From contig JAFGGQ010000138.1 in NCBI GenBank assembly GCA_016930435.1, positions 1 to 28,388 on the forward strand: DNA of 28,388 nt, read 5' to 3'. The translations under genes were made by a program, and so were the position numbers. Under the pieces are notes generated by a model. The model ran no database searches and had not been told where the DNA came from. It saw only the letters and a program-made list of their open reading frames with translations. This document shows positions 11,697-28,350 of this stretch, piece after piece. How positions within the stretch are numbered: the first letter of the stretch is position 1; each line of letters opens with the position of its first letter. Source of the DNA: a bacterium. GTDB lineage: Bacteria; UBP14; UBA6098; JAFGQG01.

Positions 11697-11724
11697 TTGA
11701 CAAGGTTTACTATCAAAATATATT
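11697..11724 (+). promoter_or_regulatory. Promoter of the 16.6-kb envelope operon
   Basis: TTGACA at 11697-11702, a 16-base spacer, and TATATT at 11719-11724. The leader to ATG 11782 is about 50 bases and includes GGGAG about 9 bases before the start. The rest of the 158-base gap after the M23 gene holds only AT-rich sequence, with no clear hairpin. Confidence 0.6.
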
Positions 11725-11781
11725 GCGTTAAATTATTTAGTAATAAAAAAGCTTATAATTTAATGAAGGGAGTATCTTCAC

Positions 11782-14700
11782 ATGATTAATATTAAAAGTA
11801 TAAATTTGATGTTTTCCATGTTGTTAATAGTTGTGATTTCCAGCTTGATATATGCTCAACCCACGCCGCCTTTGTGTTCGGATCTGGAACCTCTGGGTAG
11901 TTTTACGGCTGGAACATCTATTCTTATCCGAATTGATCCGGCCTGCGTTTCGGCAAATGATGCAGTCTGCGATTCAGTCCGCTACCGGTTCTGGCGGGTA
12001 CCTCTGTTCGCCCCTTCCGAACATTATGAAGTAACGGGTTGGATACCCTTCACCACCAGATTGTTTGATGGTATGGCGGATGGGGACCAGTATTATTTCC
12101 AGGCTCAGGCTTGTTGCTGGCCGGATACCTCCGATACCTCAAACCGCTCTATCCCACAGATCACTACCATGGATTCCCGGCGGCCCTCTCTAATCGATCC
12201 GCTTGAGATTGCACTCTGCCATGGCCCGGCTGATCCCCAGATCACATTGATGTGGCAAAAGGCCACGGACAGCGCAAGCGGAGTGGAAAAATACCGCATT
12301 TACCGGGCTGAATATATGAGCCCACTGAACTATATCCGTCTAACCGATCCATATATTGACGAAATACCCAGCGACAACAGCGATTGCTTTGACTATACCG
12401 ACAATTCATCTACCGGTTTAATGCCTTACAGGACCTACTATTATACCGTAGTGGCTTTCGATTCCGTAGGAAATTTTCACCGGTATTCCAATCCCATCGT
12501 TCATATCGAAACCGGTTTCCCGTTGCCTGTACTGCCACCCTGCGCTATACTGAAAGACCTGCCGGAATACTATTCAGCTTCCGAAATACTGGTGGAAGTC
12601 GATCTTGATGTCTGCAGTCCGAATGTTTGCGCGGGATGCGCCGGAACACAATACCGCTTTGTGAGAACCTCCGCTTTAGGTACTGATACAACCGACTGGT
12701 CCACAACCCCCAATCATCTCTGGGACGGTGAGGAATGCATTACATACAGCTTTACTGCCCAAGGCCGGTACTATGCCGAAGTGGGTGACTCATTCATGGT
12801 AGGTCCCTGGTCACCGGTCAGGAACACTACACAGGATTCCAGGGGACCGGAAGCTGTTGACTCCATCTCCGGTGAAACCATGCCCGGCGGCTGGAATATG
12901 ATCCAATGGTATGTACCACCTTACGATACTTCGTCCATGGATTGCGGTTCAGGATTATGTCATTATAACCTTTACCGTGTTACCCGGGACCAGTTGGATG
13001 ACCTTTTCCCTATCAATTCCGAAGATGACGATTATCTTCTGGGGGTGTTTAACCCGCGCGCAGTCATTGCGTATTCCTTTGCCGATTATGATACAAGCCT
13101 GAGATGGGGAACCTGCTACTATTATACGGTAATAGGGCGGGATTGCCTGGGCTATTTTTCCCCAGATGAAGCTCCTTTAGTCGAGGTATGTCTGCCTCCT
13201 AAAATCCAACCGTTTAAAATGCATACGCTGGATACCTGGAATTGTACAGATGAGGTTACTATCGAATTTGTGGATACTAACTACTGCCTTGCAGAAAGCG
13301 TTTTAATACAGAGAGCAATGTATTCCGATTTCCGCGACGCCCGGAATTTTGGATGGTATGGCATAAATGATCCCTTGCTCTCCAATCCCGATGATGGTGA
13401 TTGCTATGATTGGGATACCCTTTCATTCACCTTTACCGGCCTGGGAGAAAACCGCTATTACTTTCGGGTGCAGTGCAAGGATATCCTGGATAACTACTCG
13501 GATTGGTCCAATGTGAGCACTACCCGTATAGATAACGCCAATCCGGGCTCCCCGATTATCGATTCGATATTTACAACGGCTGATTATATTGCTACCGTAG
13601 ATGTTACCCTAAAATGGTTGCCGGTAAGGGATGCCGGCACAGGGCTGGCTAATTATATTGTTTACCGTTCTGATACCCCGGGCTCTCTGGGCGAACCACT
13701 CGCAACCCTCCCTCCATACAGATTATACTACGTGGACGAGAACCCATTGCCCGATAACTATTTCCATAATAACTACTACCAGATCGTTTCAGTGGATAAT
13801 TGCGGACACCGCGGTGAAATCGGCACTCAGGTTTCACTAACCCAGGGAGTTACCCCTCCTTATCCTCCAATGATTGATTCTATCTGTGTTGACCCCTCCG
13901 GGAATAACCTGATAGTAACCTGGAATGATACTACTCCCTATGGCTATGGCAGTCCCTTTACAAATAGATACCAGTTAGAACATGCCGAGAGCGAAAGCTG
14001 GTTGTGGATAGATGATCCCCTGCTTTTGGATAAAGAACTTCCCACATACAACCAGGCTTGCACCCTTGCAATTGATGAGGTCCTTTCCGGCACCAACCGC
14101 AAGTACTTTCACCTCAAGACTATCGACGTCTGGGATAACGAAAGCGGTTTTAGCGAGCATTATATGTACACCTATACACCCCCTCCGGACGACACTATAT
14201 ATGTGGACTTTTGTGCCGGATGGAATATGATCTCACTGCCGGTTATCCCATCTTTCAGCAATGTCGCTTCGGTTCTTATCCCCGGCGCGGATGAAAACGT
14301 CTATTATTACGATCCAGCTACCAGGCGCTACGAAGTCAGCCATGAATTACAAGTGGGAAAGGGCTATATGGTCTTCGTCGATGCCGCGGTGACGGTGCCC
14401 TTCATCGGTAGGGCATTGATGGAATATACAGCTCCGGTATTTGAAGGCTGGAACCTGCTTGGTGCGGTCTCTTACCCCGCAGAATTCAGCACTTATCCTT
14501 CTGGTATTCAGTTGGGTTCGGTTTGGTATTACGATTGCTTCAGTGACCGTTATCAGGCTACTGAGGTATTCGAGCCCGGTATGGGACACTGGTTCATGGC
14601 CCGGGCTGATGGAGCCCTTGTCTTACCCGCCGAGGGACTGGGTAAAAGAACATCAGATACGATAGAACCGGAATGGCTGGTTGAATTGAATCTGGGTGAC

Positions 14701-15312
14701 CAGGTCCTTAATTTCGGACTCCATCAGTATGCTTCGGTTTATTTTGACCAGGGACTGGATGAGATATTGCCCCCACAATTGCCGGACAGGGAATATATCT
14801 CCTTCTTTATCTGCGAAGATGGCTATCAATTAGCTACGGATATACGGAGTGGTATGGAAGTGACCTGGGAATTTTACCTAGCCGAACCAACCGTCATCCA
14901 CTGGGATTCTCGTGCACTGCCAAAAGGGCAATTAGAGATTACTACCTCCCAATATAACGATATTAATATGAATGAACTTTCATATATTAATGCTCAGGGC
15001 AAAATATCCATTACATATAACCGTATTATTCCTGAAGGATTTGCCTTGAACCAGAATATCCCCAACCCATTCAATGCCCATACCCAGATATCCTTCTATT
15101 TAAATGAGGAGACTGCAGTAAGCCTGGAAGTCTATGATATCACCGGTAGCCTGGTCAACACCATTTTCCATGGCCAGGGCAGTGCCGGATCAAATATCCT
15201 CTACTGGGATGGCACCGATTGGATGGGCCGGTCCGTCGGAAGCGGAATTTACCTTTATACCATTAGCTGTGATAGATTTAAAGAAACGAAAAAAATGCTC
15301 TTATTAAGATAA
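11782..15312 (+). CDS. Giant secreted FN3-type protein with FlgD/T9SS-like C-terminal domain
   Basis: 1176 aa. Signal peptide 1-26 (VVISSLIYA|Q). The body has modules starting at about residues 30 (PPLCSDL), 252 (PPCAILK), 472 (PPKIQPF) and 692 (PPYPPMI), a regular period of about 220 aa. Each full module is a Cys-bearing beta-sandwich followed by an FN3-like part (GVEKYRIYRAEY near 167, GLCHYNLYRV near 391, GLANYIVYRSD near 621, with YYYTVVAFDSVGN-type ends). The fourth is only a half module. Residues about 813-960 hold two GWNMISLP / GWNLLGAV units. The C-terminus (about 1085-1176) has NIPNPFN, LEVYDITGSLV, WDGTD, GSGIYLYTI and a basic KKMLLLR end. This is the FlgD Ig-like / type A sorting-type tail seen on secreted FCB proteins. 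Surface or extracellular location is likely; the ligand is unknown. First gene of the operon. Confidence 0.85.
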   Translation: MINIKSINLMFSMLLIVVISSLIYAQPTPPLCSDLEPLGSFTAGTSILIRIDPACVSANDAVCDSVRYRFWRVPLFAPSEHYEVTGWIPFTTRLFDGMADGDQYYFQAQACCWPDTSDTSNRSIPQITTMDSRRPSLIDPLEIALCHGPADPQITLMWQKATDSASGVEKYRIYRAEYMSPLNYIRLTDPYIDEIPSDNSDCFDYTDNSSTGLMPYRTYYYTVVAFDSVGNFHRYSNPIVHIETGFPLPVLPPCAILKDLPEYYSASEILVEVDLDVCSPNVCAGCAGTQYRFVRTSALGTDTTDWSTTPNHLWDGEECITYSFTAQGRYYAEVGDSFMVGPWSPVRNTTQDSRGPEAVDSISGETMPGGWNMIQWYVPPYDTSSMDCGSGLCHYNLYRVTRDQLDDLFPINSEDDDYLLGVFNPRAVIAYSFADYDTSLRWGTCYYYTVIGRDCLGYFSPDEAPLVEVCLPPKIQPFKMHTLDTWNCTDEVTIEFVDTNYCLAESVLIQRAMYSDFRDARNFGWYGINDPLLSNPDDGDCYDWDTLSFTFTGLGENRYYFRVQCKDILDNYSDWSNVSTTRIDNANPGSPIIDSIFTTADYIATVDVTLKWLPVRDAGTGLANYIVYRSDTPGSLGEPLATLPPYRLYYVDENPLPDNYFHNNYYQIVSVDNCGHRGEIGTQVSLTQGVTPPYPPMIDSICVDPSGNNLIVTWNDTTPYGYGSPFTNRYQLEHAESESWLWIDDPLLLDKELPTYNQACTLAIDEVLSGTNRKYFHLKTIDVWDNESGFSEHYMYTYTPPPDDTIYVDFCAGWNMISLPVIPSFSNVASVLIPGADENVYYYDPATRRYEVSHELQVGKGYMVFVDAAVTVPFIGRALMEYTAPVFEGWNLLGAVSYPAEFSTYPSGIQLGSVWYYDCFSDRYQATEVFEPGMGHWFMARADGALVLPAEGLGKRTSDTIEPEWLVELNLGDQVLNFGLHQYASVYFDQGLDEILPPQLPDREYISFFICEDGYQLATDIRSGMEVTWEFYLAEPTVIHWDSRALPKGQLEITTSQYNDINMNELSYINAQGKISITYNRIIPEGFALNQNIPNPFNAHTQISFYLNEETAVSLEVYDITGSLVNTIFHGQGSAGSNILYWDGTDWMGRSVGSGIYLYTISCDRFKETKKMLLLR

Positions 15313-15338
15313 ACCAAACGACCTAAATAATATATGAA

Positions 15339-15346
15339 AGAGGTGG
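15339..15346 (+). promoter_or_regulatory. Ribosome binding site deciding a TTG start
   Basis: AGAGGTGG, with its GAGG core 7 bases before TTG 15351. An ATG at 15335 is in another frame and stops after six codons, so TTG is the start of the 1558-aa protein. Confidence 0.65.
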
Positions 15347-15350
15347 GAAA

Positions 15351-18300
15351 TTGAGAAATAGAATAGTCCCAATAATTTTATTGTTTTTAACGGCAATCCT
15401 CTCTTTGCTCTATGCTCAGGGGACTCCCGTACTAATCGAAGAACCGGATTACACTCAGGGTATTACCAATACTATTTGTTGGGGACCCTCTTCATTGATG
15501 GATAATCCTGCCGTTGTAGCTTATGAGATACAGGTATCCGATTCGTTCATCGGAGAAGAACCCTTTTTCCCGGATTCCACTACTTCACGGTATTCCATCT
15601 GGCCTATCCCGGCTACTTCCGAATACATCGACGGACTTTGTTATGTTGTAGGCCTGGATTCAACCGAATCACGCGCCGATAATCCCCTCTGGGACGGAGT
15701 TGAATACTGCTATCGTCTTCGTTACAGAAACGCCTCCCGGGCCTTTAGTCCCTGGTCAAACGTGGTCTGTTCAAAACAGGACAACAGCCATCCACTGGTA
15801 AATACTATGGAATTGCCTACCTGGACTAATCAAGCTGAATTTCCGATCTCTTTTAGCATTGTGGATGAAGTTTGCCAGGGTGTTGCTGAGGTAAAATTGT
15901 ATTATCGTGAATGCGGATCTGCAGACTGGACCCTTTATCCTGAAACCATGATAGTATCGCCGGGCGTTTCCCCGGTTGATGACCATATACTCTTTAACTC
16001 AGCTACCTCGGGTGCTTATTGCTGCTATGAATTTTTCGTCGGCGCTATCGATTCACTGGGAAATGAACTGCTCCCTACCTCCGGCGCTCCTTTATGGACC
16101 AGGGTGGACCCTAATCCCCCTGCCTCAAGTGTACTGGCTTCAGAATTGCCTGCCTACAGCACCGATTCCGATTTTATAGTTCATTATAGCGGTTCCGATG
16201 TAACTTGTCCCAGCGGGATAGATACCCTAAAATTAGCTTACCTCTTCCATTATGAGACCGATCCCGTGGTTTATGCTTTCCACCTCTGGGAAGGCGCAAA
16301 TAACGTTGCCGATTCATTTTTGTTTAATAGCCTCACCTGCCGTGGTGATGGTGAATATTCCTTTTTTACGATCGCGGTCGATAGCGCCGGTAATACCGAG
16401 CTTTTTACCGGCCCGGATGATATGATCGCAGTAGATACCAAATTACCCCGAATGTCAGGTATTCTAAGCGCTGATTTAACCACTTCCCCCTCCCGTTACG
16501 ATGTGGAAGCCGAAACCGGGTGGACTAACGATATGGAGATCGGAATTAACCTTGCTGGTGAAACCGATCCTATTAACGGCGAGTATTATGCCAGCGGACT
16601 GGATAGCGTCATTATAGCACAGGATGATATGTTCACTATCGGGATTTCCCGTTATGATTATATTCCGGGTCATCAGTATCTTTATACCATTCCTGAAGGC
16701 GATGGTCCCAGAAATATCTATGCTATGGTCAAGGACCATGCCGGGAACCTCTCTCTCTCCGAACATTCTCTGATTACACTGGATACCGAGGCTCCATGCC
16801 TCGACCACATCGACTTAGATGATGTTCATATTGAGGGCACCGATACCACCGATCAACTTACAGTACGCGCCCATATTTTCCCGGATGATGATTGCCGGGA
16901 GTATTCTAAAATGTTCCTTACACAAAATTTTGCAGACCTCCTGGCTATCCCAGAAGATGACTGGCAGGATTATACAGAAAGCATCCTTTTTTCCTTCATT
17001 GGTTATGCTCCTGGTGAGTGGATGACCCTCTGGTGTGTATTAAAAGACCAGGCCGGCAATGTCTCCGAAGCATCAATGGACAGCATCCATTACCTTTTGG
17101 GAAATAAGACCATCGAGCTCGTTGGATTATACGACATCACCGGAAGATCTTGTGATGTGGATGCATATACCTGCAGTACCATGATAGATGTTCGCCTTCG
17201 CTATGGCCGCGATATTGATTCCATAGGCATCTGGGATGAAGCCGCACCCGGATATGTTTATCAGGCGGTACCGGCCATTAGCTCCAGTGATACAATAGTG
17301 GTAATGCGCTATAACATGACCCCAGAAGCCTGTATCGAACATACTATATACGCCATAGGAAAATATAATCATGATCCGGTTCCCACCGCAATTGAGTCCC
17401 TCTCTATAATTCTGGATATGAATAACCCCCAACTGCCCAGTATCAGTCTCCGCGATATATCCACCGGTTTTTCCATCTCGGACACATCGGAGATCGCCGA
17501 TGTAGGGTGGACCAATCATAGGCAGATCAGGGTCTATTTTAACGACCCGGAAGATGCCTGCACAGACATCTGCGCCCTTAAAGTGAGGAGCGGAACCCTC
17601 GATACTACGGGATCATACGAGAACCGTATTCTATTCCGAATCCCTACCGGGGATGGCGCTAAGATCGTTTATGCCTCGGTGAAGGACTCCGCTGGAAACT
17701 GGAGTTCCGAAAGCGATTCCATTATACGTTTGGATACATACCGCCCTACTGTCGCATCGGTTACCCTCAGGGATACCTTAACACTTGCGGTCAGCTCTAC
17801 CAATGATCCCACTATTTATGTTGATACCGATGCCGAGGATGGAGTTTATGCTGACCCAGCTTATATTGCAATCTTTGAAGACGAAACGCTTTATCCCACT
17901 TCACTTTCCCTGATCTGGCAACCCTACCACTCCCGCATGCTATATACCTTCGAAGAGTCAACTGAAGGGGTTAAAACCGTCTATGTTGCGGTTAAAGACC
18001 ATGCTGGCAACATCAGTTTGACCGCGGTGGACGACATCCAATTCGTCAGCGGATGCGAGAGAATGGATATCAGTGTATTCGATATCAATAACCATCCACT
18101 TGAAAACCGTTTTACCAATGCCCGGTTGGTTAATGTGCAATTCGAAGTGGTCTCTGCATCCCCACCGGTTGAATACATAATAAGTGAAACAGAGGATACC
18201 CCCACCGGTATTGATGACCCACGATGGAATCCATTTCCTGATGACAGCGTTGCTAATTACACTATCGAGGATGAAGGGGAAGGTGAAAAATGTCTTTATG

Positions 18301-20027
18301 CCTGGATCATGAGTGATGCTGGTTTTATATGCGGAGCCGCTGAATATTGTATTATCCTGGACCTCACTCCGCCCATAATTTATAATTTCATGGTGTCAGA
18401 TACTACGGCTGAGGACTTTTTCCCGGACGTTTTTATGGCTCATTCCCTTTGGTCTAATGAACCTTATGTCAAAGCCACGTTCGATTCGCTAAGTGATCCT
18501 CTCTCCGGGGTGGACAGTATAAAGTTCGAAGGGGAGTTGCTGGACTCATTGTGGCAAGTCCTGCCATATGATGTTGAGGACGATGCCATAATAATCGGCT
18601 ACGAACATTATCCTAACGCTGGAGTACCACTGATTCTTGTTGAAGATGACGATGCGGTTGCACGGCCGGTAACCCTTTCCGGCATAGACCAGGCCGAAAA
18701 CCTTGGAACTACTGTGGTTACAAACTCCAAGATCACTATTAATTTTAACCTGGACCGGATAGCGCCGGAGTTTTACTTCTCAGATATAGAAGGAAACTCT
18801 ATCGATTCAGTTGCCTGGGTGAATTATCCTGTGGTTCCCCTCTATATCAACGACGGCCCCGGCAATGGATATCTATGGAAAGCCTATTTCTGGATCGAGG
18901 GTGTTGCTGAGACACTGACCGTCGATATTGACGAATTGTGGGAAGGCGAGGGAGTGGTACATGTCCCCTTCCCATTCCTGCACTATTTCGATGATGAAGC
19001 CCGTTGGAATCAACTTTATAGGGTCCATTGCCTGGTGGTGGATAAAGCCGGTAATCCCAGCCAGATCGATATGCTGAAATGGTGGCTGATACCCTCCACC
19101 CTGGATTATGAACTGACACTTTACGATAGGGTGGATACAGATGATTTTGAATATACCAATGATTCCACCATTACCGCCCATATTACTATTGAATCACCTG
19201 CTGATTGGATGAGATTTTCGGAAACCTATGCCGGGATCAACAGCGCCGAATGGATAGCCTTTTCCGAATATTCCACCTTTACTTTTTCAAATGCGGTGAA
19301 TGAACAAAAAGAGCTTTTCTGCCAACTCAAGCATGGGATCGAATTAAGTCCCATCGATAACGCTTTTATAATTCTGGATACTATCCCTCCTACCCTGGAG
19401 GCCGTCAAACTTTATGATAAAACCGATAACGACCAGGAATGGAGCGATGAACTGGAAGTGATTGTAGTCCCGGTGAATCCTCGGGATGTTTCTCCGGGAG
19501 AAGTAGCTTCATTGAAGATGTCCGAAACCCATGATTTTAGCTTAAATGTACAGATCGACGATCTGGACGGGGATGTTTTCTATACTTTTCTGGAAGAAAA
19601 TCCCAATCCCGAATTCTGGCCCCTCCGAGAAGATGGTCAGAATGACATGAGGACCCTGTATGTACGATTATTGGATAGGGCTGAAAATGAGTCTGAACCC
19701 TTAGGTCAGACCATTCTGATCGATATTGAAGGGATGGAACTGGTGAATTATCCTAATCCTTTCAATCCCCTGGAGCAATCCACCTGGATCAGGTTGAAAT
19801 CAAAAACGGCCAATGCCCATGCGGAAATCAATATTTATGACATGTTCGGGAATTTAGTGTGGGCAAAGGAAGTAACCCTTGACGGCAAAACCGACGATAT
19901 AGAATGGGATGGCACCAATAACAAGGGTACTATTGTCGGCAACGGCGGATATATCTGTATAGTAGATGTTGCTGGTGAGGAAATGAAGCGGAAGATAGCG
20001 GTTTGGAAAAATGAATCAGAAGAATAA
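15351..20027 (+). CDS. Giant secreted protein with about a dozen Ig-like repeats and FlgD-like tail
   Basis: 1558 aa from a TTG start. Signal peptide 1-22 (PIILLFLTAILSLLYA|Q). Residues about 25-140 form an FN3-like domain resembling parts of the upstream giant protein (LWDGVEYCYRLRYR, FSPWSNV). A long tandem array follows, in which a DxAGN-type turn recurs near residues 234, 343, 462, 566, 779, 883, 987 (degenerate), 1113, 1231 and 1441, roughly every 105-125 aa (double where a unit lacks it). Many units are joined by an LDTxxP-type linker (LDTEAP, LDTYRP, LDLTPP, LDRIAP, LDTIPP). The tail from about 1461 has NYPNPFNP, INIYDMFGNLVW and WDGTNNKG, but it ends in an acidic NESEE instead of the usual basic end. 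The protein is probably extended, cell-surface or secreted. Fold is inferred from pattern; function is unknown. Confidence 0.83.
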   Translation: MRNRIVPIILLFLTAILSLLYAQGTPVLIEEPDYTQGITNTICWGPSSLMDNPAVVAYEIQVSDSFIGEEPFFPDSTTSRYSIWPIPATSEYIDGLCYVVGLDSTESRADNPLWDGVEYCYRLRYRNASRAFSPWSNVVCSKQDNSHPLVNTMELPTWTNQAEFPISFSIVDEVCQGVAEVKLYYRECGSADWTLYPETMIVSPGVSPVDDHILFNSATSGAYCCYEFFVGAIDSLGNELLPTSGAPLWTRVDPNPPASSVLASELPAYSTDSDFIVHYSGSDVTCPSGIDTLKLAYLFHYETDPVVYAFHLWEGANNVADSFLFNSLTCRGDGEYSFFTIAVDSAGNTELFTGPDDMIAVDTKLPRMSGILSADLTTSPSRYDVEAETGWTNDMEIGINLAGETDPINGEYYASGLDSVIIAQDDMFTIGISRYDYIPGHQYLYTIPEGDGPRNIYAMVKDHAGNLSLSEHSLITLDTEAPCLDHIDLDDVHIEGTDTTDQLTVRAHIFPDDDCREYSKMFLTQNFADLLAIPEDDWQDYTESILFSFIGYAPGEWMTLWCVLKDQAGNVSEASMDSIHYLLGNKTIELVGLYDITGRSCDVDAYTCSTMIDVRLRYGRDIDSIGIWDEAAPGYVYQAVPAISSSDTIVVMRYNMTPEACIEHTIYAIGKYNHDPVPTAIESLSIILDMNNPQLPSISLRDISTGFSISDTSEIADVGWTNHRQIRVYFNDPEDACTDICALKVRSGTLDTTGSYENRILFRIPTGDGAKIVYASVKDSAGNWSSESDSIIRLDTYRPTVASVTLRDTLTLAVSSTNDPTIYVDTDAEDGVYADPAYIAIFEDETLYPTSLSLIWQPYHSRMLYTFEESTEGVKTVYVAVKDHAGNISLTAVDDIQFVSGCERMDISVFDINNHPLENRFTNARLVNVQFEVVSASPPVEYIISETEDTPTGIDDPRWNPFPDDSVANYTIEDEGEGEKCLYAWIMSDAGFICGAAEYCIILDLTPPIIYNFMVSDTTAEDFFPDVFMAHSLWSNEPYVKATFDSLSDPLSGVDSIKFEGELLDSLWQVLPYDVEDDAIIIGYEHYPNAGVPLILVEDDDAVARPVTLSGIDQAENLGTTVVTNSKITINFNLDRIAPEFYFSDIEGNSIDSVAWVNYPVVPLYINDGPGNGYLWKAYFWIEGVAETLTVDIDELWEGEGVVHVPFPFLHYFDDEARWNQLYRVHCLVVDKAGNPSQIDMLKWWLIPSTLDYELTLYDRVDTDDFEYTNDSTITAHITIESPADWMRFSETYAGINSAEWIAFSEYSTFTFSNAVNEQKELFCQLKHGIELSPIDNAFIILDTIPPTLEAVKLYDKTDNDQEWSDELEVIVVPVNPRDVSPGEVASLKMSETHDFSLNVQIDDLDGDVFYTFLEENPNPEFWPLREDGQNDMRTLYVRLLDRAENESEPLGQTILIDIEGMELVNYPNPFNPLEQSTWIRLKSKTANAHAEINIYDMFGNLVWAKEVTLDGKTDDIEWDGTNNKGTIVGNGGYICIVDVAGEEMKRKIAVWKNESEE

Positions 20028-20077
20028 TAAATTTCAATATAGTAGAAAGGTAACAAGTAGTAATAAAGGGGTTATAG

Positions 20078-21913
20078 ATGATTAGACGGATAAAGCTTAT
20101 AATTATCATCAGCATTTTGATGTTCGCTATGGTAGTTGGCCTTCACGCTGTGGAGGGCACTGCCGGTCAACCAGGTGAATTCTTGCGCTGGGGATCGGGA
20201 GCCCGTTCTCTGGCAATGGGAAGGGCTTATACCAGTATAGCCGAGGGAGGCGATGCGCTTCTGTGGAACCCGGCTGGATTGGGTGGCGTGGAAAGATGGG
20301 AGCTGAGTCTGATGTACGCCCCTCTCTACGTAGATTCACGAATGAGCTATGTCTCCTTTGTTTATCCCATTGAAAGCATCGGAAAATTTGGACTAAGCTG
20401 GGTAATGCTGGGAATGAGTGATTTCGAAAGAAGGGATGAATACAATGTATCCCTGGGTGAATTCTCGGCATCCCAGTCCGCAATTAATTTTGGCTATGGA
20501 AGATGGTTCTGGCATAAGCGATTCAAGTTGGGTTTGGGAACCCGGTATATTCTCTATTCCCTGGATGAAGATAAAGCCTCGGGATGGGGGGGGATCGACT
20601 TCGGGTTCATGAGCAAACCTGTTATGCGCAAACTTACACTCGGTATGGCTGTTCAGAATATTGGTACTGCTACGATCGCGGAGGACGAATATCCCATTGC
20701 TTTCCGGGCAGGATTGAACTACCGCTTGCTTCGCAGTTTGCTGGTCTCCGCCGATGTGGATCTGCTCTCCGAACGCGCTATCTTCCCACGAGTAGGATTG
20801 GAGTACCGTTTGGGCAGGATCCTTAATCTGAGGGCCGGATATGATGGTAATGAGGTTACCTTCGGGCTCGGACTGACCCTCACCGAGATCAACCTGCTCT
20901 TTACTTCCTTCGATCTGAAGGGGAATCATACCCGGATAGATTATGCCGGTGGTGCCATGAATTCAGTAGGGAATAATTTTACCCGCTTCTCATTGACCAT
21001 TGCCGGTAAGGAAAAATACGGCTTGAAGGAACTTGCCGAGATAACCGATCCCTGTGATCATCTCAGCGATTATGAACCACTACTATACAAATTTGGTGCA
21101 GTTGGCGCTAAGGCTAACCTGATTTTCGGGGGGTGTATGTTCCTCCATGAAAGTACGGGGATACCTTTGAAAAGCAAACCTGAATTCAAGGAAGCTTATG
21201 GATATTTTAAGGAGGCTTACCTGGGTAAATATGGTGATAACTGGAAAAACCAGATCGTGACCGATGAAGAGGCCAAAAAGATATTTGCTCAGCATACTCA
21301 TTATATGTTTGCGGAATCGGAACTCCATTCCAGTGATATAAATGAAGAGGTTCTACAGAGGATAATAGACCTGAATATGGCCGGTGGGGATAGCATCCAG
21401 TACGATATTCGCCTGCAATATGACCTGGCTTACTGTTACAAGGAATTAGGTCAGACGGACAGTGCTAAGAGCATTTTTAAGTCCATATCACGTTCAGAGG
21501 GTGATAACCCTGAAAAAGTACTGGCTTTATTCGAGATGGCTAAGCTTCTCAAGGAGGGCTCGACCAGCGAAAAAGAAGAGGCTATTGGATTCCTTAACCA
21601 GATAGTGGATAAATATCAATACGGATTTTATGATGATGAAGGCAATCGCCTTTCTTATCCGATGTTCCCTAAATATTATGATAATAATATCGCCGATGAC
21701 GCGCTGATTATGCTGGCCTCTTTAAAATTCGCCCTGGGTGGAGATAGTAACCTTAAAGATGCCTTAGCGAATTACTTAAAGGTACTGCTGTTCTTTCCTG
21801 ATATGGACCAGGAGAACATCAAACTGGCATTGGCAGGCGCTGCAAGCTGCTATGAAGAGTTAGGGGATTCTGCCAAAGCTCAGGAATTGAGAACTAAATC
21901 GGATTCTTATTAG
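20078..21913 (+). CDS. PorV/PorQ-family outer-membrane barrel with C-terminal TPR-like region
   Basis: 611 aa. Signal peptide about 1-24. GEFLRWGSGARSLAMGRAYT, AEGGDALLWNPAGLGG and alternating strands to about residue 310 are typical of PorV/PorQ-family barrels. In Bacteroidetes, PorV escorts CTD cargo and works with the type IX attachment complex. Residues about 315-611 are helical, with tetratricopeptide character (LQYDLAYCYKELGQTDSAKS, ALFEMAKLLKEG, ALAGAASCYEELGDSAKAQE). Standard PorV lacks such a tail (about 390 aa), so this is a fusion or lineage-specific extension. AAAGGGG lies 6 bases before ATG 20078. It sits between the two FlgD-tailed proteins and the ExbBD genes, which fits a role in their export or anchoring. 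That role is inference. Confidence 0.82.
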   Translation: MIRRIKLIIIISILMFAMVVGLHAVEGTAGQPGEFLRWGSGARSLAMGRAYTSIAEGGDALLWNPAGLGGVERWELSLMYAPLYVDSRMSYVSFVYPIESIGKFGLSWVMLGMSDFERRDEYNVSLGEFSASQSAINFGYGRWFWHKRFKLGLGTRYILYSLDEDKASGWGGIDFGFMSKPVMRKLTLGMAVQNIGTATIAEDEYPIAFRAGLNYRLLRSLLVSADVDLLSERAIFPRVGLEYRLGRILNLRAGYDGNEVTFGLGLTLTEINLLFTSFDLKGNHTRIDYAGGAMNSVGNNFTRFSLTIAGKEKYGLKELAEITDPCDHLSDYEPLLYKFGAVGAKANLIFGGCMFLHESTGIPLKSKPEFKEAYGYFKEAYLGKYGDNWKNQIVTDEEAKKIFAQHTHYMFAESELHSSDINEEVLQRIIDLNMAGGDSIQYDIRLQYDLAYCYKELGQTDSAKSIFKSISRSEGDNPEKVLALFEMAKLLKEGSTSEKEEAIGFLNQIVDKYQYGFYDDEGNRLSYPMFPKYYDNNIADDALIMLASLKFALGGDSNLKDALANYLKVLLFFPDMDQENIKLALAGAASCYEELGDSAKAQELRTKSDSY

Positions 21914-21977
21914 ATGATACATGATAATTTGAAAAGGAAAAATTAATATAACCAAAAACTTCAAGGAGAGAGACGTG

Positions 21978-23327
21978 ATGAAAAAAGCAGCAGTAATCTT
22001 AGTAATGTCACTTTTCATCCTCAGTGCATTTCTCATGATTACTCAACAACCTGTTTTCGCTCAGGATAAGAATGATGAAGACTCATTATGGGTTCATTTG
22101 GCCACCGGAGTAGAGAGCAAGGAAGATAATAAGTTAAGTTTGAGCTTTACCTGGGAACTTTACCGAAGGCCCTTCAATGCCAAAACTCAAAAGTATGGTT
22201 CATGGGAGGAGTACTCGGATCCCAATTTAACTTATAGGATTGTTGCTGCCAGTGACAGCGCGTTTGCCAATGTATTGAAGTCCGCGGAAACGACTGGCTC
22301 CAGTTATACAATGCGGGAGCTGGTATGGGCTATGCAATATTTCGTCAGGGTCGAACCCGTTAATGTCGTTAACCCCTGGAAAACTGATTATGCAGATGGT
22401 AAGATTTTTAAAAGGTCAATACAAGAGCAGGAAACAGACAAAGGATTCTTAAAGGGATTTATCGCCTTCTCGAAAGCCGGCGGAGTGTTAATGCCTGCAA
22501 TATATGGATTGGCTTTATTCGGATTGCTGGTAGTGCTTCCTATTACCTGGTATAAATTGAGGCTTGCAAATATTTTCCCTCCAAATAAACCTGGCTTTAT
22601 ATATTCTGCATTGCCCACCGATCAGGTTGGGAAGACCAGTTTGAAAAGTCCAAAGGGGAATTTATTTATCAAGGAGGTTGCTCGTTACTGGCGAGAAGCG
22701 ATGAAGTCAATGTCGCTGGATCCCGATCATTGGGAAACCAGGGAAAAATATATTAAAGCTGATTCCCAGGAGCAGGAAGAGGTAAAAAAGACCTTCTGGT
22801 TGGATATAGGATCACCGAATATTGAAAAAGCGATCGAGGTCTGCAAGAATGGGGTTCCCGGAATCAAACTTAAAAAAGATCCCCAGGAATATCCATTTAC
22901 AAGGGTTTTTCTGGCTGCTTTAGAGAATCACAAAGCCAACCAGAACAAGTGGTGGGCTTCCCAGGAGATGGACCGGGCTACCGAAAACACCGCTCTAAAA
23001 GAGTTAGATAGTCTTAAGGGCTGGAGCTTGAATGCTCTATGGGCAATCGGCTCCATAGAACCTATGTTAGGCCTTTTCGGAACCGTGATCGGAATCCGGG
23101 GAGCCTTCATGAGCATCGAGAATATGATCAAAGAGAATCCCGATGCCCAGCTTACCCAAGTGGTCCCTCAACTTGCTGGAGGTATTCACGTAGCACTTAT
23201 CACCACCATTACCGGTTTGGCTATCGGTGTGCCTTTCATGCTTTTCTATTACTTCTACCGTGGTAAACTGGACTGGATCTATGGTAAATGGGAAGAGATC
23301 ATTATTGATATTTTAAATAGAGCATAA
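21978..23327 (+). CDS. ExbB/TolQ/MotA-type proton-channel subunit with exported FN3-like N-terminal domain
   Basis: 449 aa, about twice the length of ordinary ExbB. A signal sequence (1-28, ending VFA|Q) is followed by an FN3-like domain (about 30-145: LSLSFTWELYRR, LTYRIVAASDSAF, SSYTMRELVWAMQYFVRVEP), predicted to be periplasmic. TM1 is at about 172-195 (YGLALFGLLVVLPITWYKL), then a cytoplasmic loop, then the MotA_ExbB core: TM2 with GSIEPMLGLFGTVIGI (358-373) and TM3 with GGIHVALITTITGLAIGVP (401-419). The Thr-rich TTITGL helix is the usual proton-pathway element. AAGGAG precedes both GTG 21975 and ATG 21978, and I use the ATG. With the two ExbD genes 18 and 23 bases on, it should form a proton-driven motor in the inner membrane. 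Confidence 0.88.
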   Translation: MKKAAVILVMSLFILSAFLMITQQPVFAQDKNDEDSLWVHLATGVESKEDNKLSLSFTWELYRRPFNAKTQKYGSWEEYSDPNLTYRIVAASDSAFANVLKSAETTGSSYTMRELVWAMQYFVRVEPVNVVNPWKTDYADGKIFKRSIQEQETDKGFLKGFIAFSKAGGVLMPAIYGLALFGLLVVLPITWYKLRLANIFPPNKPGFIYSALPTDQVGKTSLKSPKGNLFIKEVARYWREAMKSMSLDPDHWETREKYIKADSQEQEEVKKTFWLDIGSPNIEKAIEVCKNGVPGIKLKKDPQEYPFTRVFLAALENHKANQNKWWASQEMDRATENTALKELDSLKGWSLNALWAIGSIEPMLGLFGTVIGIRGAFMSIENMIKENPDAQLTQVVPQLAGGIHVALITTITGLAIGVPFMLFYYFYRGKLDWIYGKWEEIIIDILNRA

Positions 23328-23345
23328 TCTAATAGGAGTATAATT

Positions 23346-23888
23346 ATGAACAAGCGAGCCGTTGAGGATATCAAACGTACCGAATGGACTTCGCTGATTG
23401 ACATTATATTCCAGCTTTTAATCTACTTCATGGTTACTCTGGCCCTGGGAACAGTAACCCAGAAGGCTTCCGCTCAGGTTAAAGGCAGTGAAAGGGAGGA
23501 TTTGCCCCAGCTTCCTACCGTATCCAAATTGGCCGATGTATCGCCATTGCTGGATTCCTATCTCCTTCATGTAGATCGCGCCAAACAAGGGAAATATAGG
23601 GGTGAATTAGTAGGGTATATACTGGATGCACAATATTCCAGTATAAAGGAAGCAGAACGTGATTCCCTTGGGGAACATGGTCCCTGGCCCCTGGAACAAG
23701 CCAAACAGATACTTAAAAAGAGAGTTGAAGATAAGATCTTCCTGGGAGAAAAACCCTCCCAGATCGAACTCCGTATCCATGAAGAAACAAAATTCGGTTA
23801 TATCCTGGATATAATGGATTTTTGTGATAAAGATTCAATTGAAACGGTCGTCTTCCATTTCTCCAAGAAAAAGGGAGACGAGGAATAA
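23346..23888 (+). CDS. ExbD/TolR-type motor subunit, first copy
   Basis: 180 aa. A short cytoplasmic N-terminus is followed by one TM helix (about 17-36) with the signature SLIDIIFQLLIYFMVT. Asp19 corresponds to the proton-carrying Asp of ExbD/TolR. The periplasmic part (about 37-180) is longer than in E. coli ExbD (141 aa) and contains an inserted region (GPWPLEQAKQILKKRV) before a final strand-helix pair typical of the family (IELRIHEETKFGYILDIMDF). AGGAG lies 7 bases before the ATG. It differs clearly from the second copy, so a mixed motor is likely. Confidence 0.87.
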   Translation: MNKRAVEDIKRTEWTSLIDIIFQLLIYFMVTLALGTVTQKASAQVKGSEREDLPQLPTVSKLADVSPLLDSYLLHVDRAKQGKYRGELVGYILDAQYSSIKEAERDSLGEHGPWPLEQAKQILKKRVEDKIFLGEKPSQIELRIHEETKFGYILDIMDFCDKDSIETVVFHFSKKKGDEE

Positions 23889-23914
23889 TCGTCTAATTTA
23901 ACCGGAGGTTAGTG

Positions 23915-24460
23915 ATGCCCCACAAGAGGGAAGAGACAGAGCTAGAGAAATCGGAATTAACCTCGATGGTGGATATGATTTTTCAATTGATGATCTTTTT
24001 TCTGGTAACTATGTCGGTTATGCCCAGTGTAAAATCAGCGCCCCAGGTGGAGGGTGCATTAAACCTGGCCCCTCCTAAACAGGGAAGCACTGAAGTTTCA
24101 CATGTTCTGCAACTGCACGTGAACCGTGAAAACGAAATGGAATATTATGTCCTTCAGGGAAATGATGATTCAGCGGAATTTTATCAGAGGATCGCGGGAA
24201 AAGCCGCTATACTGAAAACACCATTACTGAAGACCTTGGGAGAAAGATACGGGACTTATTATTCCCTTCCTATGCTAAGACAGTTTCTCTATGAGATAAG
24301 GGATTCTGATCCTAAAGTGCTGATCAGGGCTGACCGGGAATTACAATATGGAAAGGTGGTCGAAATTACTAATTATATTCATTCATTGGGAATTACAAAA
24401 TATGCCTGGGTCGGCGGGTCCTTTGCAGACCTCAATGCAGAGATAAGGAAGGGGAGGTGA
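23915..24460 (+). CDS. ExbD/TolR-type motor subunit, second copy
   Basis: 181 aa. The TM signature SMVDMIFQLMIFFLVT carries Asp20. The periplasmic C-terminus VLIRADRELQYGKVVEITNY is a textbook ExbD/TolR ending (VLIRADxxxxYGKVVEVM). A central insertion, rich in Leu/Tyr (about 75-125), is not in standard ExbD. GGAGG (23904-23908) is 6 bases before ATG 23915; GTG 23912 is too close. It starts 26 bases after copy one stops, and its stop is 6 bases before the next gene, so the motor genes are tightly coupled. Confidence 0.88.
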   Translation: MPHKREETELEKSELTSMVDMIFQLMIFFLVTMSVMPSVKSAPQVEGALNLAPPKQGSTEVSHVLQLHVNRENEMEYYVLQGNDDSAEFYQRIAGKAAILKTPLLKTLGERYGTYYSLPMLRQFLYEIRDSDPKVLIRADRELQYGKVVEITNYIHSLGITKYAWVGGSFADLNAEIRKGR

Positions 24461-24466
24461 TGAATA

Positions 24467-25018
24467 ATGAGAAACCATAGAATTATACAGCTTGTATTTT
24501 TAGGACTGATACTGGTTTCTTTTTTTTCTCTCTCCTGTACCGATGAATCCGGGGAGTCCTATATCAATATGCCAGAAGGCCCCAAGACCGTCTTCAGAGG
24601 TGGCTATGGAAAAGTGGTGATCCGCTATTTCCCGCCACCACCACCAATATTCAAGGTTGCCCAGGCTTCACAGTATCTGGACTTCGATGTGATCAGAAAG
24701 GATTATGGGATTCCGGACAAACCTATTGTTATTCAATACCTGATACAAACATCGGTAATGAGCCCTATTATCTCACAGAAAACGGCAAATGCACCTTTTA
24801 ATAACTATGTAGTCAGTGTAGTGCAAAGCTGGATCTATACGCGATATGGAACTGGTTCCCTCAAGATCAAGATCGATGTGGCTAAAAAGAAGATGTGGGT
24901 TGATGCCGATGGTATAAAATTAATTGACCCCGAACCGGGAAAGCCAAGGCCCACAGTAGCGCCGGGCCGACAGCTTGTAGCTTCTACTGGCTTTACTATC
25001 TACGAAGGCAAATTTTAG
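24467..25018 (+). CDS. Small proline-rich putative lipoprotein, possible TonB-like partner of the ExbBD motor
   Basis: 183 aa. MRNHR, a hydrophobic stretch, then FSLSC with Cys24 suggest a lipoprotein signal, although the lipobox (SLSC) is not canonical; an uncleaved anchor is possible. RYFPPPPPIFKV (prolines 56-60) is a short stiff Pro tract. The C-terminal part (about 100-155: NNYVVSVVQSWIYTRYGTGS, LKIKIDVAKKKMWVD) has the helix-Trp-strand-strand order of a TonB C-terminal domain, but the similarity is weak and I could not test it. GGGGAGG is 9 bases before the ATG, overlapping the end of the second exbD. The position directly after ExbB-ExbD-ExbD is where tonB often lies. I do not recognise the family with certainty. 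Confidence 0.6.
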   Translation: MRNHRIIQLVFLGLILVSFFSLSCTDESGESYINMPEGPKTVFRGGYGKVVIRYFPPPPPIFKVAQASQYLDFDVIRKDYGIPDKPIVIQYLIQTSVMSPIISQKTANAPFNNYVVSVVQSWIYTRYGTGSLKIKIDVAKKKMWVDADGIKLIDPEPGKPRPTVAPGRQLVASTGFTIYEGKF

Positions 25019-25059
25019 TTTATAATAATAACGGTTATAACTCAAAGAAGGTGGTAATT

Positions 25060-28000
25060 ATGGAGTTGAAGAAGCTATACCTGCTCTTACTGGTTATAGT
25101 AATTTATATAACGGGTATTATTGGGCTTATTAATGCCCAAGGGATAAGGGAAGCCATTGAGGTACTGGATCAAGGTATCGAATTATACCAGAATGAAAAA
25201 AGCGAGGAAGCAGGAGCAAAATTCGAGGAAGCTGAAAGCAAGTTCGAAACCCTAACCAAGGATGTTATCTCTCCCGAAGACCTGGCTTATTCCCAGTACT
25301 ACCGCGCTACTGCGCTATATTATATGGGCCGGATCCGTAATCAGGTAGATCATTATAACAGCGCTTCAGCTACTTTCGGAGAAGCCATTAACGGTTTCAA
25401 GGGAATTGATCTGCTCGGTGAAGAGTACATCCGCTCAAAATACCTACGGGCTTTATGTTCTTTTCGAAAATATCAGATGGAACGCGCAGAAAGAAGCCAG
25501 AAAATGCTCCTTGAGGAAAGTATCGGGGATTTCCTGGATTTTCTTAATGATGAAGCCCTAAGGGACCCTGAAGGCTATCAAGACCTGATCGATAATGCCA
25601 ATTATCTGATCGGCTTTTCCCTTTACCAGGCTGGAATGCTGGATGCATACCGCAGTGCAACTTTATCCAAGGCATTGAAATCCTATAATGATGCTCTGGA
25701 CTATCTTGTGAAGTTAAAGGATGCAGAAGATGAAAAACTGACCATTGCCTCAAAAGTGATGGAAGCGCAAGCGAACTATATGATGGCCCGGCTCTTTATG
25801 CGCGTGGATGAAGATGATTGGGAAAGCCAAAAATTAACTAGCGGTTCTAAGGACGCAGCTATAGAAGCAAAGCTGAAGAACTCCATGGCTTTGGCTCAGG
25901 AAGCAAGCGGTAAAGCGGGAACCTACCCTGACCTGAAAATGCAGGCACGGATGTGTATAAATTCCTGCAAGATCGCTCAGGGTTCCATCGGCGATAAAAA
26001 TGGCCTGAATGAAGCGATGTCTGACCTCACCGACCTCAGGGAGTCACCCGGCTGGCAGGACATCGTTCTCGAAAAAATTGCCGATTCACAATTACTGCAC
26101 TTTTTGATCTTCGAAGGCACTCAGGGAAATGTGATAACTAATTATAAGAGGGTAGCATCTTCTCTTAACGAATCCAACTACTGGATTGGCTGGGCACATT
26201 ATATTCTGGGCGAGTACGATGATGCAATACTTAAATTCAATCAATTCCTCGCCAGTGTGCCTACCCTGGAAAGCCGTTTTAAAGAACTGGAAGCAGATGC
26301 AAAGTTTCGTTTGGCAGAGAGCTTTTTCTGGAAGGGGGTCAGGGAAAGCAATGTTCAGATTCTGAAGAGGGCGGAAGAGATATTTAAGGCCCTGGTTGCC
26401 GAAGACGGACGATATTATGAGTTTTTAACCCGACAGCAGATCGGAGCTGCTACCACGAGACTTTTCCTTATTGATGTAGAAGCTACTCTTGGAGGGGAAG
26501 CCGATGTTTCCCTCTTCGAATCCGTTATGGAAGTTGCTGGGTTAAAGCTGCCCGAAAACGCCGAAGACTTTATCGAAGCTGGCAAATATTTCCTGGAAAA
26601 GGGCATTCAAACCGCTGAATTACAGAGAGAGAATGCCTTGAAATTTGCCCAAAAAGCATTCGATCTGGTAATTGGAGCTTCGGTCTCCGGTGATATCAAG
26701 AATAGAGCGAATTTTCTTAAAGGTGTTAACCTGGTTAAATTGGCTACCCTTTATGAGGGGAACAAGCAGAATGAAACCCTGGATCAGGCTCGCCGTATTC
26801 TGGAAGGATGTTCCGCTCCTTATAGCGATGAAGCTAAATATGTGGTAGGCATCAGCTATTTCATCGCTAACGATTATACACATGCTATTACTACTTTCGG
26901 AGCCCTGAAGAACCGGGGCCATATCCGCGGTGCTTTTTATTACGCCCTTTCTAATACCGGAAATTGTAATCTTCAGGGTGAAACCTACCTCCAGATTCAA
27001 AAAACCGTCAAGGACCGTACCGATTATTGGTATCGCAGCGCTGACCTTGAGCTTGGCAAATTACCCTGTCGCAATTCATTGGGGGATGTTTCTGCATTCA
27101 GTTCAAGCGTGCCGGAACCACCGATTACTTATGAAAAACTGGTGGATAAGAAAGCTGAAGAAGCCCGGAAGAAAGATGAAGCCCGTGTAATCTGGCAGAG
27201 AGCATCTGCTTATCTCACAGATTATCCTGTTGAAAAGCTGATCACCGATAAACCACCTAAAACTAATGTAACCGTAAGGTTTATTATTGAACCTGGCAAG
27301 GGCGATGAAATCGTCCTGGTAGATGGTGATGAATCCCTGGTGGAAAACGTGGATGACGCAACATATAGGGCTGAAGTTACCAGGGGTACTCATGATATAG
27401 CCATCAAAAAGAAGGGATTCTATCTTTGGGAAGGTAAGATAAAGGTTACCAAACCAGATGATTTTTATGTAACCCTGAAAAAAGCTGTTCGTTATACCAA
27501 GGCTGAAGATATTGGGGGTACTCAAAACCCCATCACCATCGCTGCTGCAGGTGAAAATATCTTCATAGCTAATAACGGAATGAGACAGATAATTCAGTAT
27601 GACAATAACCTATCCCAAATTGATAAAATAAGTTACGACGGATTGGGATTGGGATTCGTAAGCGGCCTGGGAATTGACGGCGATCGTTTGATAATCGTCG
27701 ATAGCAGGAGAAATAAGGTCATTTCCACCACTCTGGCAGGTGGTGATCCCAAATTTGTAGCATACGAGAATGAGGAATATGGAGCTTATGTCCTTAATAA
27801 ACCCAGCGACATTGCAGTTTCCGAGGGTGCTTATTATGTGGTAGATTCCGGGAATAAGAGAGTGTTAGTATTCGACGGTACTACTTATCGCCGTGACTTC
27901 GGATCGGACAAACTTATTCAGCCACATGGGATTGCAGTTAACCCGATCACCGCAGAAATATACGTTACTGACTGGGGTCAGAATGCGATCCTGATCTTCG

Positions 28001-28287
28001 ATAGAAGTGGAGTTTACCAAAACACTGTAAACCTGGCTGCACAAAATCATCCAAATCGAGTTTATATTGATCCCTCGGGGTATCTCTATATTACCGATCT
28101 GGTCAGTAACTCAGTGAAGATATACAATTCCAAAGTGGAGAAGATCAGCGATGGAATTAGCGGTATTCATACCCCCCGTGGCCTTACCCTGGTCGGTTCT
28201 GGGCCGGAAGCTACCCTTTTCGTAGCCGGAAAGGATAAAGTGGCGGTATATAAGGGAAGCTGGGACAATGTCTATATGCCCGATTGA
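25060..28287 (+). CDS. Exported TPR / PEGA-like / six-bladed NHL-propeller protein
   Basis: 1075 aa. Signal peptide about 1-26 (LLLLVIVIYITGIIGLINA|Q). Residues about 27-700 are helical repeats of TPR character (AIEVLDQGIELYQNEKSEEA, YYRATALYYMG, NYLIGFSLYQAG, GWAHYILGEYDDAILKFNQF). Residues about 736-805 look like a PEGA-type beta domain (VTVRFIIEPG, EVTRGTHDIAIKKKGFYLWE). Residues about 818-1075 contain six NHL-like blades (IFIANNGMRQIIQYD, LIIVDSRRNKVIST, YYVVDSGNKRVLVFD, IYVTDWGQNAILIFD, LYITDLVSNSVKIYN, LFVAGKDKVAVYKG). I start at ATG 25060 because AAGGTGG (25048-25054) occupies the earlier in-frame GTG. It is the last gene of the operon, followed by a terminator. A periplasmic scaffold, or one facing the outer membrane, is the natural guess. 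No enzyme motif is seen. Confidence 0.82.
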   Translation: MELKKLYLLLLVIVIYITGIIGLINAQGIREAIEVLDQGIELYQNEKSEEAGAKFEEAESKFETLTKDVISPEDLAYSQYYRATALYYMGRIRNQVDHYNSASATFGEAINGFKGIDLLGEEYIRSKYLRALCSFRKYQMERAERSQKMLLEESIGDFLDFLNDEALRDPEGYQDLIDNANYLIGFSLYQAGMLDAYRSATLSKALKSYNDALDYLVKLKDAEDEKLTIASKVMEAQANYMMARLFMRVDEDDWESQKLTSGSKDAAIEAKLKNSMALAQEASGKAGTYPDLKMQARMCINSCKIAQGSIGDKNGLNEAMSDLTDLRESPGWQDIVLEKIADSQLLHFLIFEGTQGNVITNYKRVASSLNESNYWIGWAHYILGEYDDAILKFNQFLASVPTLESRFKELEADAKFRLAESFFWKGVRESNVQILKRAEEIFKALVAEDGRYYEFLTRQQIGAATTRLFLIDVEATLGGEADVSLFESVMEVAGLKLPENAEDFIEAGKYFLEKGIQTAELQRENALKFAQKAFDLVIGASVSGDIKNRANFLKGVNLVKLATLYEGNKQNETLDQARRILEGCSAPYSDEAKYVVGISYFIANDYTHAITTFGALKNRGHIRGAFYYALSNTGNCNLQGETYLQIQKTVKDRTDYWYRSADLELGKLPCRNSLGDVSAFSSSVPEPPITYEKLVDKKAEEARKKDEARVIWQRASAYLTDYPVEKLITDKPPKTNVTVRFIIEPGKGDEIVLVDGDESLVENVDDATYRAEVTRGTHDIAIKKKGFYLWEGKIKVTKPDDFYVTLKKAVRYTKAEDIGGTQNPITIAAAGENIFIANNGMRQIIQYDNNLSQIDKISYDGLGLGFVSGLGIDGDRLIIVDSRRNKVISTTLAGGDPKFVAYENEEYGAYVLNKPSDIAVSEGAYYVVDSGNKRVLVFDGTTYRRDFGSDKLIQPHGIAVNPITAEIYVTDWGQNAILIFDRSGVYQNTVNLAAQNHPNRVYIDPSGYLYITDLVSNSVKIYNSKVEKISDGISGIHTPRGLTLVGSGPEATLFVAGKDKVAVYKGSWDNVYMPD

Positions 28288-28314
28288 TAATATATTTAAA
28301 TGGATTTGCTCAGG

Positions 28315-28350
28315 AAAGCTCCCTTTAATAAAGGGAGCTTTTCTTTTTTT
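28315..28350 (+). terminator. Intrinsic terminator closing the envelope operon
   Basis: A perfect 12-base-pair stem (28315-28326 pairs with 28330-28341, core GCTCCC/GGGAGC), a 3-base AAT loop, and a T-rich run to 28350. It begins 27 bases after the stop of the TPR-NHL gene. It is the only strong rho-independent terminator I found in the window. The remaining 38 bases to the right edge show no gene start. Confidence 0.92.

What the first reader, a model, noticed from the sequence alone, without database searches (positions are those of the whole stretch)
11697..28350. Self-contained 16.6-kb operon: two giant FlgD-tailed secreted proteins, PorV-TPR barrel, ExbB-ExbD-ExbD motor, lipoprotein and TPR-NHL protein
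Eight same-strand genes with gaps of about 6-65 bases lie between one good promoter and the only strong terminator. They contain cargo-like proteins with T9SS/FlgD-type tails, a PorV-like escort, a PMF motor and two envelope proteins. Established: T9SS is powered by the GldL/GldM motor and uses PorV. Inference: in this lineage an ExbBD-type motor may take the GldLM role, or the whole unit may be a new surface-display machine. I know of no described system with this exact composition.
Basis: partly seen in the sequence, partly recalled or inferred. Interest (0 to 1): 0.8.

Follow-up and report, generated by a model that had tools for sequence, protein, structure and literature searches.

The report
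Ton-like motor operon beside T9SS
In a little-known group of bacteria (GTDB phylum UBP14), an eight-gene block that never changes order pairs a proton-driven motor with surface proteins and an outer-membrane escort of the type IX secretion kind, and it may be the missing engine of that secretion system in bacteria that lack the known one.

Summary
Eight same-strand genes (11782-28287, gaps 6-61 b) end in a strong terminator and keep their order in all 14 UBP14 relatives where the locus was found (28-81% identity). A divergent copy in the same order lies in another phylum (G205), variants in G094 and G164/G302. The 'lipoprotein' has a predicted TonB/TolA C-terminal fold, so the unit reads cargo-cargo-PorV/TPR-ExbB-ExbD-ExbD-TonB-like-TPR/NHL. 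The phylum also encodes SprA (15/17 genomes over cut-off) and PorU (17/17), but no detectable GldL or GldM. It has a separate Ton module and a separate Tol-Pal, so this is a third motor, forming its own ExbB clade (100/99). Best reading: a Ton/Tol/Agl-type energy chain dedicated to the type IX pathway, doing the GldLM job at least for its own surface proteins (confidence about 0.5; coupling is inferred). Cautions: the unit is not self-contained (SprA and PorU lie elsewhere); SprA without GldM is common outside Bacteroidota (138 of 386 sampled genomes have SprA, 3 have GldM) and most of those genomes lack this block; the layout also resembles the Myxococcus Agl-Glt gliding machine. No experiment supports function.

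The parts
11697..11724 (+). Candidate sigma-70 promoter (TTGACA-16-TATATT) in the 158-b gap before gene A
   Evidence: 11 of 12 matches; class of site not enriched over shuffles
11782..15312 (+). Gene A: 1176-aa Sec-exported FN3-rich protein with FlgD/type-A sorting tail
   Evidence: TIGR04183 33.4 bits, cut-off 23; FlgD_ig 34.5, cut-off 27; first gene in relatives
15351..20027 (+). Gene B: 1558-aa Sec-exported Ig-repeat protein with a sub-threshold FlgD/T9SS-like tail
20078..21913 (+). Gene C: PorV/PorQ-family outer-membrane barrel (residues about 34-308) fused to a TPR region
   Evidence: NF033709 118.1 bits, cut-off 90; TPR_6
21975..23327 (+). Gene D: ExbB/TolQ-type proton channel with signal peptide and a periplasmic FN3-type domain (37-144), TM1 173-197, cytoplasmic helices, TM2 327-387, TM3 393-449
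   Evidence: fn3 also hit in the G205 homologue
23346..23888 (+). Gene E: ExbD/TolR 1, membrane Asp19 kept
23912..24460 (+). Gene F: ExbD/TolR 2, membrane Asp kept
24467..25018 (+). Gene G: predicted lipoprotein (invariant Cys24) with Pro-rich stretch and TonB/TolA C-terminal-like fold (about 58-142)
25051..28287 (+). Gene H: Sec-exported TPR + (PEGA/Ig-like, by homology) + NHL beta-propeller protein
   Evidence: PEGA+NHL in the G164 counterpart
28312..28344 (+). Intrinsic terminator
10319..11623 (+). M23 peptidase gene, conserved upstream neighbour in several relatives (possible accessory for crossing peptidoglycan; inference)

Best explanation
The operon encodes a dedicated trans-envelope energy chain of the Ton/Tol/Agl kind that serves a type IX secretion pathway. 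D with E and F would form a proton-driven 5:2-type inner-membrane motor. G, a TonB/TolA-like domain on a lipid (or signal) anchor, would carry force across the periplasm, with H (TPR + Ig-like + beta-propeller, comparable in layout to PorE/TolB) as relay. C, a PorV-type barrel with a periplasmic TPR tail, would receive A and B after they pass SprA and hold or move them on the surface. In this lineage the chain would do what GldLM does in Bacteroidota, at least for A and B. Shown: the genes, their order and conservation, the motor residues, the TonB-like predicted fold, the presence of SprA and PorU, the absence of detectable GldL/GldM, and separate Ton and Tol modules. Inferred: all physical contacts, direction of force, and the link to SprA.
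For: Order A-H kept in all 14 relatives examined, with a divergent copy in the same order in G205 and variants in G094 and G164/G302. Membrane Asp of both ExbDs and the TolQ-type Thr/Gly motifs invariant. G folds like TonB/TolA CTD: the top 16 entries in the second look are all TonB, TonB homologues or TolA, Z 7.7-4.6, the next unrelated row 3.1; the gene in the same position in G164 has a significant TonB_C hit, 1.8e-8. SprA over cut-off in 15/17, PorU in 17/17 with 15 over cut-off, GldM and GldL in 0/17 over cut-off and no credible weaker hit. UBP14 Ton and Tol modules are separate, and the operon ExbB is a separate clade with those of G205/G094, 100/99. Motor and PorV-type gene are neighbours on the same strand in all these lineages. 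Outside UBP14 both carriers G205 and G094 are SprA+.
Against: No experiment. GldL/GldM profiles were built on Bacteroidota and could miss divergent homologues, GldL most of all. Most SprA+ genomes lack the operon, so SprA does not generally need it. SprA and PorU are not in the operon, and another PorV-like protein sits next to PorU (L132). G011 has the operon but no detected SprA and G015 has SprA but no operon (both draft MAGs). G has no sequence-family hit and its model is only moderate (pLDDT 66, pTM 0.52). Foldseek E-values for G are weak (best 0.038).
Confidence: 0.5

Rival explanations
1. It is a surface machine like Myxococcus Agl-Glt: the motor moves or anchors the adhesins A and B (gliding, attachment) and is not needed for their export, which is powered by another, unknown source.
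For: Composition parallel: AglR + AglQ/AglS (one TolQ, two TolR), TonB-CTD proteins GltG/GltJ, several TPR proteins and outer-membrane barrels (PMC3169522, PMC5349195). A and B are conserved in cis and in length, unlike ordinary cargo. Other FlgD-tailed proteins are encoded elsewhere in the genome.
Against: No FHA/MreB-coupling protein and no Glt-specific family hit in the window genes. PorV-type protein and type IX tails point to the T9SS. In Flavobacterium the same motor does both jobs (PMC10994853), so the two readings are not exclusive.
Confidence: 0.25
2. It is a nutrient-import Ton system with an unusual outer-membrane partner.
For: ExbB-ExbD-ExbD-TonB is the make-up of the conventional Ton module of the same genomes. 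In other SprA+ genomes an ExbB-ExbD-TonB locus lies beside a PorV-family gene and a TonB receptor (L136).
Against: No TonB receptor in the operon in any relative. The phylum has its own Ton module, whose ExbB groups with those other PorV-linked loci and not with D. PorV-family proteins are not known to bind TonB.
Confidence: 0.1
3. It is a Tol-Pal-like system that tethers or stabilises the envelope, with A and B as surface-layer proteins.
For: G fold is close to TolA CTD too and H combines TPR and beta-propeller like CpoB/TolB and PorE (PMC12204202). D is closest to TolQ among solved structures.
Against: A Tol-Pal-like locus exists elsewhere (L049, L131), there is no Pal/OmpA domain in the operon, and the ExbB clade is separate from TolQ.
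Confidence: 0.1

Closest known systems
Type IX secretion system (SprA/PorU/PorV with GldLM/PorLM motor)
   Same: PorV-family protein, type A/FlgD-tailed exported proteins in the operon; SprA and PorU in the same phylum; PMF motor near an outer-membrane pathway; H layout comparable to PorE
   Different: GldL/GldM not detected; motor is ExbB/ExbD type with two ExbDs and a TonB-CTD protein; PorV-type protein carries a TPR tail
Myxococcus xanthus Agl-Glt gliding machine (AglRQS, GltG/J, GltC/D/E/I, GltA/B/H)
   Same: One TolQ-type and two TolR-type subunits, TonB-CTD transducer, large TPR proteins, outer-membrane barrels
   Different: PorV barrel and FlgD-tailed proteins; NHL propeller; no FHA protein; one operon; phylogenetic relation of D to AglR not tested (no AglR sequence available here)
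Ton system ExbB-ExbD-ExbD-TonB
   Same: Motor composition and a TonB-like CTD
   Different: No TonB receptor in the operon; ExbB has a periplasmic FN3 domain and forms a separate clade; G is a predicted lipoprotein without a Pfam TonB_C hit
Fibrobacter succinogenes FSU_2396-2403 (OmpA, TPR, TPR, ExbB, ExbD, ExbD, TonB-family)
   Same: TPR + ExbB + two ExbD + TonB neighbours, up on cellulose, T9SS-type cellulases (PMC6851124)
   Different: No PorV or FlgD-tailed gene listed in the cluster; authors assign cellodextrin uptake; homology to this operon not tested

Membership tests
Type IX secretion system | SprA translocon in the genome | tested here: met
   own G000:C77, 646 bits in one frame (cut-off 200); 15/17 phylum genomes over cut-off
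Type IX secretion system | PorU sortase | tested here: met
   own G000:C156, 625 bits (cut-off 420)
Type IX secretion system | PorV-family shuttle | tested here: met
   C, NF033709 118 bits (cut-off 90); below the cut-offs of the PorV and PorQ equivalogs
Type IX secretion system | Cargo with type A CTD | tested here: met
   A over TIGR04183 cut-off; B below it
Type IX secretion system | GldL and GldM (PorL/PorM) motor | tested here: not met
   0 of 17 genomes over cut-off, no credible weaker match; the GldM profile finds 264-394 bits in three other genomes
Type IX secretion system | GldK/GldN ring, SprE, PorE | not tested
Ton system | ExbB, ExbD and TonB-like transducer | tested here: inconclusive
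   ExbB/ExbD met; G only by predicted fold, Z 7.7 to 1u07, no PF03544 hit
Ton system | TonB-dependent receptor in or served by the locus | tested here: not met
   none in the operon; receptors elsewhere, and a separate Ton module exists
Agl-Glt machinery | One TolQ and two TolR subunits | tested here: met
Agl-Glt machinery | Glt-specific families (GltC/D/E/G/J, FHA-TonB protein) | tested here: not met
   no Glt family or FHA hit in the eight proteins at E 0.1
Agl-Glt machinery | Common ancestry of D with AglR | not tested
   no AglR sequence in the searchable sets
Tol-Pal | Pal and TolB in the locus | tested here: not met
   no OmpA/Pal domain; Tol-Pal-like locus elsewhere

The most novel reading that the evidence does not exclude
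Type IX secretion is not tied to GldLM: outside Bacteroidota it is driven by Ton/Tol/Agl-type motors, and this operon is one such engine, a third ExbB family with a periplasmic FN3 domain that works through a TonB-like lipoprotein on a PorV-type shuttle.
Probability: 0.4. Interest if true: 0.88.

Novelty: new variant of a known kind. Interest (0 to 1): 0.75.

Why it matters
The T9SS literature read here ties power to GldLM and the system to Bacteroidota or the FCB group (PMC10994853, PMC11205867 abstract). In 386 sampled genomes, 138 carry SprA and only 3 a recognisable GldM, so how most SprA-bearing lineages power export is open. This operon gives a concrete, genetically linked candidate engine, makes the question testable, and joins three motor fields (Ton/Tol, Agl gliding, T9SS).

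Tried and rejected
The genome-contig scan with the ExbB profile returned only UBP14-like records and missed G205, so its two peptide patterns are too strict to prove absence elsewhere. The idea that every PorV-ExbB neighbourhood is the same system was rejected: PorV-linked ExbBs of L134-L147, L150 and L188 group with the UBP14 Ton ExbB, and the annotated example L136 carries a TonB receptor. A general PorV-ExbB link in SprA+ genomes is not claimed: 12 of 27 selected loci but only 2 of 20 unselected top-hit loci, against 2 of 20 random loci and 0 of 11 SprA- loci. An improved ExbB profile in 80 SprA+ genomes found no further clear member. Literature searches found no description of such an operon. 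PDB sequence search with the G profile found nothing. Promoter enrichment not supported.

Full report
OBSERVATION. The window is one whole contig (28,388 b) of a draft genome of 2.85 Mb, 90% complete. Matched records of its relatives are labelled UBP14 (UBA6098) or unnamed bacteria, one as Zixibacteria, so I place it in GTDB phylum UBP14; this naming is an inference from record titles. Eight + strand genes run from 11782 to 28287 with gaps of 6-61 b. Downstream is a 15-pair terminator, the strongest in the scanned part; upstream is a 158-b gap with one good promoter match, a class of site that is not enriched over shuffles.

GENE G. The short 'lipoprotein' has no family hit. All 13 aligned members keep a Cys after the hydrophobic start and a Pro-rich stretch. 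The AlphaFold2 model is moderate (pLDDT 66, pTM 0.52), but the second-look alignment lists only TonB, TonB-homologue and TolA C-terminal domains in its first 16 rows (Z 7.7 to 4.6), well above the next unrelated row at 3.1; Foldseek agrees with weak E-values (best 0.038). Three facts point the same way: the strand order beta-beta-helix-beta, the place after the ExbDs, and the significant TonB_C hit of the gene in this place in G164. The G205 counterpart starts with a hydrophobic segment but has no aligned lipidation Cys, so the lipid anchor may be a UBP14 trait.

MOTOR. D keeps the TolQ/ExbB core, and its periplasmic part is an FN3-type sandwich: predicted strands 37-144, TM1 173-197, long TM2/TM3 helices. 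Foldseek hits are TolQ/ExbB for the core and FN3 modules for the N-terminus, and the G205 homologue hits Pfam fn3. Both ExbDs keep the membrane Asp in all 24 aligned rows. So a proton-driven motor is likely, with two different ExbDs.

CONSERVATION. D is found in 15 of 17 UBP14 genomes and G strongly in 15; only G015 lacks both. In all 14 relatives whose locus was read, A-B-C-D-E-F-G-H stand in this order as far as the contig goes, at 28-81% identity. Four genomes of one family have an extra FN3-domain-like protein between C and D. A ninth TPR gene follows H in most relatives. G205, in another phylum, has A to H in the same order at about 20-30% identity, with B split into two ORFs in that draft. 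G094 has A, B, C, three ExbBs, two ExbDs and further genes. G164 and G302 have PorV-TPR, ExbB, ExbD and TonB-like, TPR and PEGA-NHL genes, with one ExbD and H split.

GENOME CONTEXT. SprA is over cut-off in 15 of 17 genomes and PorU is found in all 17, while GldM and GldL give nothing credible. The GldM profile does find three other genomes at 264-394 bits. UBP14 SprA scores about 0.25-0.3 of the two highest SprA scores; a GldM of similar divergence should still give roughly 70-110 bits (my estimate), so a miss of GldM in all 17 is unlikely, while GldL could be missed. TonB receptors exist, and so does a separate ExbB-ExbD-ExbD-TonB module that can serve them (inference); Tol-Pal is separate too. 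In a 62-row tree the operon ExbBs form one clade with G205 and G094 (100/99) on a long stem, apart from UBP14 Ton and Tol ExbBs.

HOW FAR IT GOES. In a sample of 386 genomes 138 have SprA and 3 have GldM. Thus GldM-less SprA is not special to UBP14, and most such genomes have no recognisable copy of this operon. PorV-family genes lie near ExbB in 12 of 27 selected loci of SprA+ genomes, always upstream on the same strand, against 2 of 20 random loci; but in 20 unselected top-hit loci the count is 2. Eight of the 12 are Ton-type loci by the tree, and the annotated one carries a TonB receptor. So there are two separate PorV-motor associations, and only the D-type is the present system.

MECHANISM. 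In Flavobacterium GldLM passes proton-motive force to a hub that drives both SprA export and gliding (PMC10994853). TonB/TolA-type transducers link ExbBD-type motors to the outer membrane, and Agl-Glt uses one TolQ, two TolR and TonB-CTD proteins to move outer-membrane parts (PMC5349195; PMC3169522). PorE, a T9SS part, is read as a TPR-propeller-Ig-Pal fusion that may take force from a TonB/TolA-like protein (PMC12204202). The operon supplies each of these roles: motor D/E/F, transducer G, TPR-Ig-propeller relay H, PorV-type shuttle C, surface proteins A and B. The simplest account is an energy chain for the type IX pathway, most surely for A and B. Every contact in it is inferred.

VERDICT. 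I file it as a new variant of a known kind: a Ton/Tol/Agl-type motor wired to type IX parts.

Noticed in passing
G000-G385 sample: SprA homologues in 138 of 386 genomes but GldM in only 3; the power source of type IX export outside Bacteroidota is an open question in itself.
   Followed up: partly
L136 (1915-11801), L134, L135, L145, L146, L147, L150: A second PorV-motor neighbourhood in other SprA+ genomes; annotated in L136 as TonB receptor, T9SS-tailed protein, PorV family, GWxTD protein, ExbB, ExbD, ExbD, TonB. Their ExbBs group with Ton ExbBs.
   Followed up: partly
L034:18228-19901, L035:11223-12728, L036:896-2632, L039:17226-18812, L043:16789-18366, L044:17232-18752: A ninth, TPR-rich protein follows H in most UBP14 genomes; in the window the contig ends just after the terminator.
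   Followed up: partly
window 8808-11623: Memo/AMMECR1 and M23 peptidase genes upstream are conserved neighbours in several relatives (e.g. L051, L052).
   Followed up: partly
L035:3866-4426, L037:8478-9020, L040:9727-10284, L044:10205-10756: Extra protein related to the N-terminal FN3-type domain of D, encoded between C and D in one family.
   Followed up: no
L103:10772-15266 and L104:589-2187: G094 has three tandem long ExbBs plus a fourth nearby in one cluster; the reason for the duplication is unknown.
   Followed up: no
L132:3873-10242: PorU followed by an 822-aa fusion of a propeller (Reg_prop) and a PorV barrel in the own genome.
   Followed up: no
G077:C1:3473543-3475060: GldM (362 bits) in a complete genome without a detected SprA.
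   Followed up: no
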